A stretch of 64,000 bases of DNA from Tolumonas auensis DSM 9187 (GTDB taxonomy: Bacteria > Pseudomonadota > Gammaproteobacteria > Enterobacterales > Aeromonadaceae): the NCBI RefSeq assembly GCF_000023065.1, contig NC_012691.1, positions 606,501-670,500 on the forward strand, in the 5' to 3' direction. Under the pieces are notes generated by a model that did no database searches, had not been told where the DNA came from, and saw only the letters and a list, made by a program, of their open reading frames with translations. Shown in pieces: positions 5,766 to 41,932 of this stretch. How positions within the stretch are numbered: the first letter of the stretch is position 1; every line of letters starts with the position of its first letter. The position numbers and the translations under genes were made by a program.

Positions 5766-5861
5766 CAAAGGAAGCAACTTCGCCGACACGCCGTGAACCC
5801 GTCCTTGGGGGCTCCACCGCGCCTTCCCTGGCGCGGAGGGTCTCTGAAGTTGTTCCCTTTG
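5766..5861 (+). repeat. Intergenic palindromic repeat, copy C (96 bp)
   Basis: Terminal arms CAAAGGAAGCAACTTC (5766-5781) and GAAGTTGTTCCCTTTG (5846-5861). The inner stem CCGCGCC/GGCGCGG (about 5817-5836) sits in the right half, and the shared GTGAACCCGTCC...GGGGGCTCC block in the left. It lies directly upstream of the toxin-antitoxin promoter. Confidence 0.92.
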
Positions 5862-5903
5862 TCTGCTGTGTGAATTATAGCAAGTCTTATATTTGGAGTA
5901 TTT

Positions 5904-5960
5904 AAAGTGTTTTTAAGGGTGCTTTTAATAGTGCTATAATGAAAACGTAAGCATAGGAGT
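5904..5960 (+). promoter_or_regulatory. Promoter and possible operator of the toxin-antitoxin pair
   Basis: An extended -10 (TG-C-TATAAT, 5932-5940) lies 28 bases before the antitoxin ATG, with only a weak -35 (TTTAAG, 5912-5917). Three roughly 12-base direct repeats of the form GTGNTTTTAA overlap it (near 5907, 5919 and 5931, the last carrying the -10). Such repeats could be where the antitoxin or the complex binds for autoregulation. AGGAG at 5955-5959 is the ribosome binding site. Confidence 0.6.
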
Positions 5961-5967
5961 ATCGAAT

Positions 5968-6219
5968 ATGGCATATCAAATTCTGACATCTGTTGCAGCC
6001 AGCATCACTGAGCTGAAGAAAAATCCGATGGGAACGGCAATGGAGGGGGAAGGTCAGCCGGTCGCTATTCTGAATCGCAATGAACCGGCTTTTTATATCG
6101 TCCCGCCTGCATTGTTTGGCTATTTTCAGGAGTTAGCTGAGGATGCTGAATTGAATCGGATCGCTGATGAACGAATGAATAATCCTGAGTTTATCGAGAT
6201 CAGTATTGATGACCTATAG
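5968..6219 (+). CDS. stbD: Antitoxin, Phd/YefM-like family (StbD type)
   Basis: Putative labile antitoxin that neutralises the RelE-like toxin encoded next and represses the operon. 83 aa. The N-terminal part (AYQILTSVAASITELKKNP, GQPVAILNRNEPAFYIVP) is the Phd/YefM DNA-binding fold as in StbD. The acidic C-terminal tail (NNPEFIEISIDDL) is the usual toxin-wrapping segment. The ATG at 5968 has AGGAGT 7 bases upstream. The stop overlaps the toxin start, giving translational coupling. The pair sits alone between two groups of 96-bp repeats and has no functional link to purH or the Lrp gene, suggesting acquisition. The StbD name is by resemblance; RelB-like is the alternative label. Confidence 0.85.
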   Translation: MAYQILTSVAASITELKKNPMGTAMEGEGQPVAILNRNEPAFYIVPPALFGYFQELAEDAELNRIADERMNNPEFIEISIDDL

Positions 6220-6490
6220 ACTGAAATTTGAGAAAAGAGCCTGGAAAGAGTGGGAGAAGCTAGGTCATCCGGTCAGAGATCAGTTTAAAAAGAAGCTGGC
6301 CGAGCGCCTGAAAAATCCTCGTGTTCCGAGTGCCAAGCTCAGTGGTCATGCTGATCGTTATAAAATCAAGTTGCGGTCAGCTGGCTATCGGTTGGTTTAT
6401 CAGGTGTTCGATGATGAAGTGGTTGTCAGTGTGATCGCCGTTGGTAAGCGCGAAAATTCGGATATTTATAATACGGCCAGCGGGCGTTAA
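6209..6490 (+). CDS. stbE: Toxin, RelE/ParE family (StbE type)
   Basis: Predicted mRNA-cleaving toxin (ribosome-dependent RNase in RelE/StbE). 93 aa from the ATG at 6209, which overlaps the antitoxin stop; a TTG one codon earlier is a less likely start. Features are the RelE opening YRLKFEKRAWKEWEKLG, the basic helix QFKKKLAERLKNP, LSGHADRYKIKLRSAGYRLVYQV with conserved basic and Tyr residues, and the closing VVVSVIAVGKREN. The length is normal and the reading frame intact, so it is probably functional. It forms an operon with the antitoxin and has no terminator before the flanking repeat. Confidence 0.88.
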   Translation: MTYRLKFEKRAWKEWEKLGHPVRDQFKKKLAERLKNPRVPSAKLSGHADRYKIKLRSAGYRLVYQVFDDEVVVSVIAVGKRENSDIYNTASGR

Positions 6491-6528
6491 GTTCACAATT
6501 CTACCGAGTCTTCCATGGTGAAACCGGC

Positions 6529-6624
6529 CAAAGGGAGCAACTTCGCCGACACGCCGTGAACCCATCCATGGGGGCTCCACCGCGCCATCCCTGGCGCGGA
6601 GGGTCTCTGAAGTTGCTCCCTTTG
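6529..6624 (+). repeat. Intergenic palindromic repeat, copy D (96 bp)
   Basis: Perfect 16-bp terminal inverted arms CAAAGGGAGCAACTTC (6529-6544) and GAAGTTGCTCCCTTTG (6609-6624). The inner stem CCGCGCC ATCCCT GGCGCGG is at 6580-6599. Same orientation as copies B, C and E. It starts 38 bases after the toxin stop. Confidence 0.93.
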
Positions 6625-6653
6625 TCTGCCGGGTCATCTTCTGTGAGGACGGC

Positions 6654-6749
6654 CAAAGGAAGCAGCTTCGCCGACACGCCATGAACCCGTCCATGGGGGC
6701 TCCGCCGCGCCATCCCTGGCGCGGAGGGTCTCTGAAGTTGCTCCCTTTA
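6654..6749 (+). repeat. Intergenic palindromic repeat, copy E (96 bp)
   Basis: Arms CAAAGGAAGCAGCTTC (6654-6669) and GAAGTTGCTCCCTTTA (6734-6749), the same internal organisation and exactly the same length as C and D. It lies 29 bases after D, in tandem orientation, and 33 bases from the 3' end of the Lrp-family gene. Confidence 0.93.
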
Positions 6750-6782
6750 GCCGGACAGGTGACGGATTAAGCTCTTTACTGC

Positions 6783-7256
6783 TTATTCCAGATGATCGAG
6801 CGGCAGCGAGGTGAACTGTTTGACCTGTTGCAGGACGAAGCTGGAGCGTACGCCGGTGACGCCGTCGATGCGGGTCAGTTTTTCCAGCAGGAAATGCTGG
6901 TAGTATTCCATATCGGGTACTACTACTTTGAGCTGGTAGTCGGCATCGTTACCGGTGATCAGGGCGCATTCCATCACTTCCGGCATTTCGGATACCGATT
7001 GATTGAAGTTATTCAGGCGCTCCGGGGTGTGCTTGTCCATGTTGATATGGATGTAAGCGATCAGTTTTAAATTCAGTTTTTCCGGGTTAAGCAGGGTAAC
7101 ATGCTTTAAAATCAGCCCTGATTCTTCCAGTGCCTTGATACGGCGTGAACAGGGTGAAGGGGATAACCCGACTTGTTCGGCGAGATCCAGATTGCTGATG
7201 CGGGCATCTTTCTGCATCAGGTTCAGAATTTTTTTGTCTAAACGGTCTAATTTCAT
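6783..7256 (-). CDS. Lrp/AsnC family transcriptional regulator
   Basis: DNA-binding regulator with an effector-sensing RAM domain, probably responding to an amino acid. 157 aa from ATG 7256 (MKLDRLDKKILNLMQ), preceded by GGAA. The N-terminal winged HTH spans about residues 5-60 (ISNLDLAEQVGLSPSPCSRRIKAL), and the C-terminal RAM domain about 65-150 (ALITGNDADYQLKVVVPDMEYYQHF). It resembles the DecR/YbaO branch more than Lrp itself, but the ligand cannot be told from sequence. The divergent stretch upstream holds the candidate small RNA, not an obvious target operon. Confidence 0.9.
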   Translation of the reverse strand: MKLDRLDKKILNLMQKDARISNLDLAEQVGLSPSPCSRRIKALEESGLILKHVTLLNPEKLNLKLIAYIHINMDKHTPERLNNFNQSVSEMPEVMECALITGNDADYQLKVVVPDMEYYQHFLLEKLTRIDGVTGVRSSFVLQQVKQFTSLPLDHLE

Positions 7257-40074: not shown

Positions 40075-40153
40075 TCCCCCTCAGCTTTATTATTCCGATG
40101 GTTTAAACCTTGCATAAGCTTTGGCTTAAGTGAGAGTTACACCGGAGGATGGC

Positions 40154-41098
40154 ATGAACAGCGAATTAGATCGTGCGCTGGGTTGTCTGGTTGGCTTGGC
40201 CGTTGGTGATGCCGTCGGTACCACGCTGGAGTTCAGGCCAAGAGGTTCATTCAAGCCACTGACCGATATGGTGGGTGGCGGTCATTTTTGTCTGCAGAAA
40301 GGTTATTGGACAGACGATACCTCCATGGCGCTTTGCATGGCGCACAGTCTGCTGGATCGTGGCGGATTTGACGCAGCGGATCAGATGAACCGCTATTGCG
40401 ACTGGTACGATAACGGCTATCTCAGCAGTATCGGCAACTGTTTTGATATCGGGACGACGGTTTCCAGTGCGCTGCGCCGTTTTCAGAAAAGCGGTAATCC
40501 GTTCTCCGGGATGACTGCCCGCTGGACATCCGGCAATGGTTCTATCATGCGTCTGGCTCCGATCCCGATCGCTTATTTACAAGCTCCTGAACAGGCCATT
40601 CATTTTGCCAAACAAAGCTCGCGTACCACGCATGCGGCACCGCTCTGTCTGGATGCGTGCGGCTGGCTGTCGGCACATCTGCTGAATCTGCTGCAGGGCG
40701 GGGATAAAGAAAGTGTGTTGCATGTGTCTTATCCGCCACAAACTGAGGCAATTGCCACATTACAGCAGTTTGAATTTCTGGATAAAAATTACCGCGATCT
40801 GAAAGGTACCGGCTATGTGCTGGAAAGCCTGGAGGCCGCATTATGGTGTTTCTGGCATACGCATTGTTATGCCGATTGTATTCTGGCGGCTGCCAATCTT
40901 GGTGATGATGCCGACACTACGGCCGCTGTCGCCGGGCAGCTGGCGGGGGCGTACTACGGTTATCGGGGGATCCGGAAAGACTGGCTGCAGCATCTCTACT
41001 GGCATGATGAGATCTGTGCGCTGGCGGAGCGTCTTTATCACCTGCAACCCGCGAGTGAAGAACTGACACCGGAGTGGCCTGATGCCGCCATTACCTGA
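40154..41098 (+). CDS. draG: ADP-ribosyl-dinitrogen reductase hydrolase DraG
   Basis: Di-Mn ADP-ribosylhydrolase that removes ADP-ribose from nitrogenase Fe protein and so reactivates it. 314 aa from ATG 40154 with CGGAGG 6 bases upstream. It opens with ALGCLVGLAVGDAVGTTLEFRPRG, carries the metal motif YWTDDTSMAL (about 50-60), SGNGSIMRLAPIPIAY, SSRTTHAAPLCLDAC, and the second metal motif NLGDDADTTAAVAGQLAGAYYG, all standard for DraG. Its stop overlaps the draT start by 17 bases. The family is shared with other ADP-ribosylhydrolases, but the draT partner decides the name. No NifA-type site or sigma-54 promoter was seen upstream. Confidence 0.92.
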   Translation: MNSELDRALGCLVGLAVGDAVGTTLEFRPRGSFKPLTDMVGGGHFCLQKGYWTDDTSMALCMAHSLLDRGGFDAADQMNRYCDWYDNGYLSSIGNCFDIGTTVSSALRRFQKSGNPFSGMTARWTSGNGSIMRLAPIPIAYLQAPEQAIHFAKQSSRTTHAAPLCLDACGWLSAHLLNLLQGGDKESVLHVSYPPQTEAIATLQQFEFLDKNYRDLKGTGYVLESLEAALWCFWHTHCYADCILAAANLGDDADTTAAVAGQLAGAYYGYRGIRKDWLQHLYWHDEICALAERLYHLQPASEELTPEWPDAAIT

Positions 41099-41894
41099 AG
41101 AACGCACTTTACTGGCACAACTGACCCTACCGCTCAATCGCTGCAATGTTCCGGCACCGGTACTGGCCAGTCTGGCCTATCAGCAATATCCGGTTTCACT
41201 GCAACTGGATGGTATCGAAACGTTTTATCCGGAGTTATTTGATCGCTTAGTTGCCTGCCGCGATCCCCGGCAACGGATGAGTATTTTCAGCGACTACATG
41301 GCGGTGCGTTTTCGTTTACCTGAGGCCCGGCTTGCTCTTCGTCCGGATGCCGATCCGGTTCCCCGTCCGCAGAGTAATTACCGGAAACTGTTGCTGGGCT
41401 GGCTGTTTGATTCTGACAGTGATGCCGGTGCCGCCTGGCGGCAGTGGGTCGAATCCCGCTTTGGCTTAAGAACCATTTATCATCACGAACTGATTCCACC
41501 TCAGGATTCAGACGCTTATCTGCGCTATATGCGGGCTTGTGTCCGGGCGACTTATCAAACCAATGATCTGGCCGGGCAGCTGGATCTGTTGTATTGCTTT
41601 TGTCAGTATCAGCTGGCGCATCTTTACCCGATGCAGCAGCATTTAACGTTGTACCGGGGCAGCAATGATGCTCCGCGTTATTATCATGAACAGCAGCCGG
41701 TTTTATTGCTGAATAATCTCAGCTCCTGCAGCAGTGATGTGGACGAGGCCTACCGGTTCGGTCCGAAAGTTGTCGAACTGCAGGTCCCGCTGAGCAAAAT
41801 AGTCTGTTTTGATACCTTGTTACCGCGCGGATTAAATGGTGAACACGAATATATGGTTTTAGGCGGGATTTATAAGGTCAGGCAGGTGTGGTGA
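41082..41894 (+). CDS. draT: NAD+--dinitrogen-reductase ADP-ribosyltransferase DraT
   Basis: Transfers ADP-ribose from NAD to an arginine of NifH, switching nitrogenase off in response to ammonium or darkness/energy loss. 270 aa, family length. It contains the R-S-E features of arginine-specific ADP-ribosyltransferases: R192 in TLYRGSND, Ser 214/215 in LNNLSSCSSD, and the E-x-E pair E254/E256 in NGEHEYMVLGG. The middle has the family stretch ATYQTNDLAGQLDLLYCFCQYQLAHLYP. It overlaps draG by 17 bases, so synthesis is coupled. In Rhodospirillum draT comes first; here the order is reversed. nif genes must lie outside the window. Confidence 0.9.
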   Translation: MPPLPEERTLLAQLTLPLNRCNVPAPVLASLAYQQYPVSLQLDGIETFYPELFDRLVACRDPRQRMSIFSDYMAVRFRLPEARLALRPDADPVPRPQSNYRKLLLGWLFDSDSDAGAAWRQWVESRFGLRTIYHHELIPPQDSDAYLRYMRACVRATYQTNDLAGQLDLLYCFCQYQLAHLYPMQQHLTLYRGSNDAPRYYHEQQPVLLLNNLSSCSSDVDEAYRFGPKVVELQVPLSKIVCFDTLLPRGLNGEHEYMVLGGIYKVRQVW

Positions 41895-41902
41895 TCCGGA
41901 AC

Positions 41903-41932
41903 AATAAAGACGTGGTTGCCCACGCCTTTATT
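41903..41932. terminator. Terminator between draT and hemL
   Basis: AATAAAG-A-CGTGG (41903-41915) pairs with CCACG-C-CTTTATT (41920-41932) with one mismatch. It lies between convergent stops. The end is AT-rich rather than a clean T-run, so moderate strength. Confidence 0.7.

What the first reader, a model, noticed from the sequence alone, without database searches (positions are those of the whole stretch)
40154..41894. DraG-DraT pair: reversible nitrogenase ADP-ribosylation next to the ribose operon
Both enzymes of the nitrogenase off-switch occur as an overlapping pair in the order draG-draT (reverse of the classical draT-draG) with intact active sites. This predicts that the organism fixes nitrogen and shuts nitrogenase off quickly on ammonium addition. 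No nif, amtB or glnB-type gene and no NifA or sigma-54 site is near, so control must differ from that of nif genes.
Basis: partly seen in the sequence, partly recalled or inferred. Interest (0 to 1): 0.6.

Follow-up and report, generated by a model that had tools for sequence, protein, structure and literature searches.

The report
Nitrogenase off-switch with a swapped eraser
In the nitrogen-fixing bacterium Tolumonas, the enzyme that switches nitrogenase off (DraT) is paired not with its usual partner DraG but with a different ADP-ribose-removing enzyme, closer to toxin-immunity proteins, so the same switch appears to have been rebuilt with another part.

Summary
The pair is real and at the stated coordinates: draG 40154-41098 and draT 41082-41894, overlapping by 17 bp, in the Tolumonas auensis TA4 genome. 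Across Aeromonadaceae, draT tracks nifH (10 genomes with both, 3 incomplete genomes with draT only, 0 with nifH only, 62 with neither).

Two points were missed or wrong. (1) The "DraG" is not the classical DraG. It scores 176 bits against the DraG model (cut-off 337) and 329 against Tri1 (cut-off 490), lies outside the classical DraG clade (100/100), lacks DraG's ExxA adenine motif, and is the only hydrolase of its family in every draT+ relative. All 26 hydrolases seen beside 47 other draT genes are classical; 36 of those draT genes sit head-to-head with nifH. (2) A conserved -24/-12-like (sigma-54) element lies 40 nt before draG.

Best reading: a DraT/DraG switch whose eraser was replaced once, in the Tolumonas ancestor, by a Tri1-like ADP-ribosylarginine hydrolase. 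The ribose-operon adjacency is incidental. Activity and PII control are untested. An early-diverged true DraG is not formally excluded (AU p = 0.29).

The parts
40154..41098 (+). draG-position gene: ADP-ribosylglycohydrolase (314 aa), Tri1-like branch, not the classical DraG clade
   Evidence: PF03747 1.2e-76; NF041672 Tri1 328.8 bits, TIGR02662 DraG 176.4 bits, both under their cut-offs; trees; residues
41082..41894 (+). draT: NAD+-dinitrogenase-reductase ADP-ribosyltransferase (270 aa)
   Evidence: PF07357 2.3e-89; R192, S215, E254 and E256 conserved; tree
41082..41098 (+). 17-bp overlap of draG end and draT start; suggests translational coupling (inferred)
   Evidence: an overlapping draG-draT arrangement is also seen in the relatives
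40099..40114 (+). candidate sigma-54 -24/-12 element TGGTTTAAACCTTGCA (GG-N10-GC), 40 nt before the draG ATG
   Evidence: footprint in 10 Tolumonas genomes at 37-40 nt from the ATG; mean information 1.67 bits per column against 0.61 upstream and 0.86 downstream
40144..40149 (+). ribosome-binding site GGAGGA before draG
   Evidence: sequence
41903..41932 (.). hairpin AATAAAG-A-CGTGG / CCACG-C-CTTTATT between draT and the convergent hemL: likely bidirectional terminator
   Evidence: sequence; core stem found at 41911-41924

Best explanation
draG-draT is the reversible ADP-ribosylation switch of the Mo-nitrogenase of T. auensis. DraT, when nitrogen is plentiful, moves ADP-ribose from NAD+ to Arg101 of NifH and stops nitrogenase; the product of the upstream gene removes it again. 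The eraser is not the classical DraG but a Tri1-like ADP-ribosylarginine hydrolase that took over the role once in the ancestor of Tolumonas and its sister genus, when the pair also left its usual place head-to-head with nifHDK and became an overlapping draG-draT unit with its own sigma-54-like promoter. Shown: the genes, their families and intact sites, the nif cluster and Arg101, co-occurrence with nifH, absence of any other hydrolase of this family, separation from classical DraG, conservation of the pair and of the promoter element. Inferred: enzyme activities, NifH as the target, the replacement event, sigma-54 control, PII control.
For: Families. nif cluster and NifH Arg101. Co-occurrence in Aeromonadaceae: both 10, draT only 3 (65-87% complete genomes), nifH only 0, neither 62; Fisher p = 3e-10, not corrected for relatedness. 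Gammaproteobacteria sample: 17 of 19 draT genomes have nifH against 31 of 369 overall. Each of the 13 draT+ Aeromonadaceae has exactly one PF03747 protein, the draT neighbour. 47 other draT loci: 26 hydrolases in view, all classical; 36 draT head-to-head with nifH. Trees: classical DraG one clade 100/100 without Tolumonas; Tolumonas DraG one clade on the Tri1-like side; Tolumonas DraT on the gamma/beta side of the DraT tree. Purifying selection on both genes (dN/dS about 0.02-0.07).
Against: No activity, expression or NifH modification data. The AU test does not reject Tolumonas DraG as sister of classical DraG (p = 0.43 and 0.29), so replacement rests on tree incongruence and on an assumed DraT root. 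Three draT+ genomes lack a true nifH hit, though all are incomplete. Nitrogen fixation by T. auensis was not found reported in the open library.
Confidence: 0.72

Rival explanations
1. The hydrolase is a true DraG ortholog that diverged very early (sister of all classical DraGs), kept with its DraT; nothing was replaced.
For: AU test does not reject it (p = 0.43, 0.29). The aspartate described as DraG-specific (Asp97 of R. rubrum DraG, PMC7050489) is present as D98, though Tri1-like proteins have it too.
Against: Tolumonas DraT lies inside the gamma/beta DraTs in the midpoint-rooted tree, whereas its partner lies outside all classical DraGs, those of the alpha-type DraTs included. Identity is 46-56% to stand-alone Tri1-like proteins and 31-35% to classical DraG.
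Confidence: 0.18
2. DraT in this clade has a target other than NifH, and the pair works as an immunity or toxin-antitoxin-like module: antidote gene first, overlapping, antidote of the Tri1 type.
For: Tri1 is an immunity hydrolase against an FtsZ-modifying toxin (PMC7827354). Gene order antidote-then-transferase and distance from nif. One relative has a frameshifted draT and an intact draG.
Against: DraT is an ordinary PF07357 member with co-occurrence with nifH; NifH Arg101 is present; no secretion, toxin or mobile gene is seen beside the pair in the stretches read; the pair is absent from all 62 nifH-less genomes of the sister genera.
Confidence: 0.06
3. The hydrolase is a chance neighbour with an unrelated role, and DraT modification is reversed by some other enzyme or not at all.
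For: Stand-alone Tri1-like hydrolases occur in non-diazotrophs, plasmids and jumbo phages.
Against: The pair is kept in 13 of 13 genomes although its flanks change completely in the sister genus, and no other PF03747 protein exists in these genomes.
Confidence: 0.04

Closest known systems
DraT-DraG switch of Rhodospirillum rubrum and Azospirillum brasilense
   Same: DraT family, NifH with Arg101, two PII proteins and Amt proteins in the genome, metal site of the hydrolase
   Different: Hydrolase is of another branch (176 bits against a DraG cut-off of 337), order draG-draT, 88 kb from nif, no ExxA motif, Thr or Met in place of the Asn100 that affects PII-dependent membrane binding, and the 7-residue segment before it that classical DraGs lack
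Tri1, ADP-ribosylarginine hydrolase and immunity protein of Serratia proteamaculans (6DRE)
   Same: Best-scoring solved structure (254 bits) and best NCBIfam model; shared FDIG segment
   Different: Below the Tri1 cut-off (329 against 490), no N-terminal region (match starts at model position 65), partner is DraT, not a secreted toxin
Stand-alone ADP-ribosylglycohydrolases of plasmids and jumbo phages (e.g. Polaromonas pPNAP04, 56%)
   Same: Nearest relatives by identity
   Different: No draT next to them

Membership tests
DraT (PF07357) | Profile match over the curated cut-off | tested here: met
   299.4 bits, cut-off 25
DraT (PF07357) | Conserved R-S-E type residues of arginine ADP-ribosyltransferases | tested here: met
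   R192, S215, E254 and E256 nearly invariant in 57 DraTs; assignment to R-S-E by position, no structure
DraT (PF07357) | Occurs with nitrogenase, NifH with acceptor Arg101 | tested here: met
DraT (PF07357) | Modifies NifH | not testable with these tools
   needs experiment
Classical DraG (TIGR02662) | Profile match over the curated cut-off | tested here: not met
   176.4 bits, cut-off 337.05; the classical DraGs tested score 389-445
Classical DraG (TIGR02662) | Member of the classical DraG clade | tested here: not met
   classical clade 100/100 without it
Classical DraG (TIGR02662) | Binuclear metal site and the Asp97 equivalent | tested here: met
   E26, D54, D55, D98, D252, D254 and T255 in 13/13 (PMC7050489)
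Classical DraG (TIGR02662) | ExxA adenine-binding motif (Glu121 of R. rubrum) | tested here: not met
   R123-W-T-S126 here; no Glu in any of 13
Classical DraG (TIGR02662) | Sequestered by a PII-AmtB complex | tested here: inconclusive
   PII and Amt genes exist but are unlinked; the Asn100 position is Thr or Met; PMC6067124 reports that among the substitutions tested only N100K lost ammonium-induced membrane location
Tri1 (NF041672) | Profile match over the curated cut-off | tested here: not met
   328.8 bits, cut-off 490
Tri1 (NF041672) | N-terminal region of the Tri1 model and a neighbouring secreted ADP-ribosylating toxin | tested here: not met
   match starts at model position 65; neighbour is draT
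sigma-54 promoter | GG-N10-GC with TTGCA at a fixed distance from the gene, conserved | tested here: met
   9 of 10 genomes have GG-N10-GC, all 10 have TTGC[AT]; -24 box is degenerate
sigma-54 promoter | Upstream activator site | tested here: not met
   no perfect TGT-N10-ACA within 250 bp in any of the 10 Tolumonas genomes; nifH has one

The most novel reading that the evidence does not exclude
A Tri1-type immunity-like hydrolase has become the nitrogenase eraser in Tolumonas and, lacking the classical PII-docking surface, is not sequestered by GlnK-AmtB, so switch-off here is set by DraT activity and joint transcription of the pair alone.
Probability: 0.25. Interest if true: 0.7.

Novelty: new variant of a known kind. 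Interest (0 to 1): 0.5.

Why it matters
[quoted passage not shown] A lineage in which DraT works with a hydrolase from another branch would separate the chemistry (any ADP-ribosylarginine hydrolase may do) from the regulation (PII-AmtB sequestration of classical DraG). It gives a natural test of whether DraG sequestration is needed, and links nitrogenase control to a family otherwise known from immunity, plasmids and phages. It also warns that annotation as draG by neighbourhood can hide a different enzyme.

Tried and rejected
Control by the ribose operon: rejected, other Tolumonas have 2.5-3.8 kb of other genes between rbsR and draG, and the sister genus has neither rbs nor hemL beside the pair in the stretches read. 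Structure models of both proteins failed (mean pLDDT 36 and 35), so no fold search was made. The 7-residue segment before D98 was first read as an insertion shared with Tri1, but lmo0067 (outgroup) has a similar stretch, so it may be ancestral and lost in classical DraG; it is not used as evidence of kinship. AU tests did not settle where classical DraG joins the tree. A NifA-type site upstream of draG was sought: only one-mismatch matches, at no fixed position and about as many as chance would give. A strict sigma-54 pattern with 2 mismatches missed the site, which explains how a reader would miss it. Literature searches for Tolumonas with draT and for Tri1 with DraG gave nothing. Phage and plasmid collections hold relatives of the hydrolase but only one DraT, in Rhodobacter, with a classical DraG.

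Full report
What is there. The window is part of the 3,471,292-bp chromosome of Tolumonas auensis TA4 (position 606501-670500; length as published, PMC3236046). Two genes lie at the stated place: an ADP-ribosylglycohydrolase (40154-41098, PF03747, 1.2e-76) and a DraT (41082-41894, PF07357, 2.3e-89), overlapping by 17 bp in the order draG-draT. Each is the sole member of its family in the genome. The DraT has R192, S215, E254 and E256 in columns nearly invariant over 57 DraTs. The hydrolase keeps the family's metal site.

Nitrogen fixation. A nifH of 475 bits (cut-off 394), nifD, nifK, nifE, nifN, nifU and nifS, all over their curated cut-offs, and NifX/NifY-like proteins lie at 736,283-749,242, 88 kb downstream of draT. 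NifH has arginine at position 101 in GCAGRGV, the residue that DraT modifies in R. rubrum (PMC7050489). Over 75 Aeromonadaceae, 10 have both draT and a true nifH, 3 have draT only (65-87% complete genomes), none has nifH only and 62 have neither (Fisher p = 3e-10, not corrected for relatedness). In an even sample of 369 Gammaproteobacteria, 19 have draT and 17 of these have nifH; 31 have nifH over the cut-off in all. The nitrogenase reading therefore stands.

The hydrolase is not classical DraG. It scores 176 bits against TIGR02662 (cut-off 337) and 329 against the Tri1 model (cut-off 490), and Tolumonas relatives score alike (168-177 and 313-334), while six classical DraGs from draT+ genomes score 389-445 and 138-161. 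Its best solved relative is Tri1 (6DRE, 254 bits), before the Thermus protein (225) and R. rubrum DraG (125). In 47 further draT loci from the class and phylum samples and one plasmid, 26 hydrolases are in view and all are classical; 36 of the 47 draT genes are head-to-head with nifH. In all 13 draT+ Aeromonadaceae the draT neighbour is the only PF03747 protein, so no classical DraG is hidden elsewhere. Trees put classical DraGs in one clade (100/100) and the 13 Tolumonas-clade proteins in another, on the side of Tri1 and stand-alone plasmid, phage and chromosomal hydrolases. The Tolumonas DraT, in contrast, lies with gamma- and betaproteobacterial DraTs, on a long stem. The two genes thus have different histories: the simplest account is one replacement of the eraser. 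The weak point is that the long stem of classical DraG joins the other side at an unresolved place; a tree with Tolumonas DraG as its sister is only 3-4 log units worse (AU p = 0.43 and 0.29). That rival is kept at 0.18.

What differs in the protein. The aspartate called DraG-specific (Asp97) is present, but the adenine-binding ExxA motif is not (R-W-T-S in T. auensis), and Asn100, the residue whose change to Lys abolishes ammonium-induced membrane binding of R. rubrum DraG and which corresponds to a residue in the DraG-GlnZ interface of Azospirillum (PMC6067124), is Thr or Met in all 13. Classical DraGs lack the 7-residue segment just before this site that the Tolumonas protein has. So the PII docking surface is probably different; whether PII still binds is unknown. 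GlnB (3,208,390), a second PII (2,794,703) and two Amt proteins (577,081 and 3,430,268) are present but none of the PII genes adjoins an amt gene by coordinates.

Control region. Upstream of draG, the best-conserved block in 10 Tolumonas genomes is cGGTgTAAaCCTTGCAT (TGGTTTAAACCTTGCA in T. auensis, 40099-40114), at 37-40 nt from the ATG, with 1.67 bits per column against 0.61 upstream and 0.86 downstream. It has the GG-N10-GC spacing of sigma-54 promoters and a perfect TTGCA -12 box; the -24 box is degenerate. By the frequency of such sites in the window (22 on both strands of 64 kb) one would fall in a given 40-nt stretch on the right strand with a chance of about 0.7% (own arithmetic). In some relatives part of the block overlaps the end of an upstream gene, but in others, T. 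auensis included, it is non-coding. The nifH promoter of the same genome is TGGTATGTGACGTGCA with a TGT-N10-ACA site 110 bp before it. No such activator site was found before draG, so NifA, NtrC or another activator remains open.

Surroundings. rbsR ends 80 bp before draG in T. auensis, but relatives carry a molybdopterin-type protein, a GGDEF/EAL protein and others in between, an MCP gene between draT and hemL, and the sister genus has the pair in quite other surroundings (protein names read from the translations, no family search made). The overlapping pair is the conserved unit; the ribose operon is not. Both genes are under purifying selection. One Tolumonas genome (G070) has a single-base deletion in draT at the codon after Arg192, with draG intact.

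How it most likely works (shown steps in the paragraphs above; the rest inferred). Under nitrogen limitation a sigma-54 promoter makes both proteins; DraT is idle and the hydrolase keeps NifH free. On ammonium addition DraT, probably through GlnB, modifies NifH Arg101; the hydrolase later restores it. Known: DraT and DraG control by PII in R. rubrum and A. brasilense (PMC6490700, PMC7050489). Unknown here: whether the substituted hydrolase is held back during switch-off, without which modification would be a futile cycle. That is the question that makes the case interesting.

Noticed in passing
L079:6212-7023 (G070, Tolumonas): draT carries a single-base deletion right after the Arg192 codon while draG is intact and nifH is present; either an assembly error or a lost off-switch.
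   Followed up: partly
L082:5568-5827 and 5849-6802 (T. auensis 1,590,567): Third PII-like protein beside a transporter that looks like SbtA: a possible SbtA-SbtB bicarbonate pair in a heterotroph.
   Followed up: no
G178 and G295 (family f107): Two gammaproteobacterial genomes hold draT, a classical DraG and, elsewhere, a Tri1-like hydrolase (54% and 46% identical to the Tolumonas one); possible intermediates of a replacement.
   Followed up: partly
L160 (Acidovorax plasmid), L161 (Erwinia jumbo phage), L165 (Rhodothermus plasmid): Stand-alone relatives lie near NAD/ADP-ribose genes (NUDIX and RNA 2'-phosphotransferase; NMN adenylyltransferase about 4 kb away) or in tandem with a second ADP-ribosylglycohydrolase, hinting at ADP-ribose metabolism roles.
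   Followed up: no
G065, G069, G070, G071, G073, G074: Several Tolumonas genomes carry two or more NifH-type proteins over the nifH cut-off (possibly alternative nitrogenases); T. auensis has one.
   Followed up: no
L084, L087, L130, L145, L166: Classical co-directional pairs are draT->draG, whereas many others are convergent with draG; gene order varies although draT stays head-to-head with nifH.
   Followed up: partly
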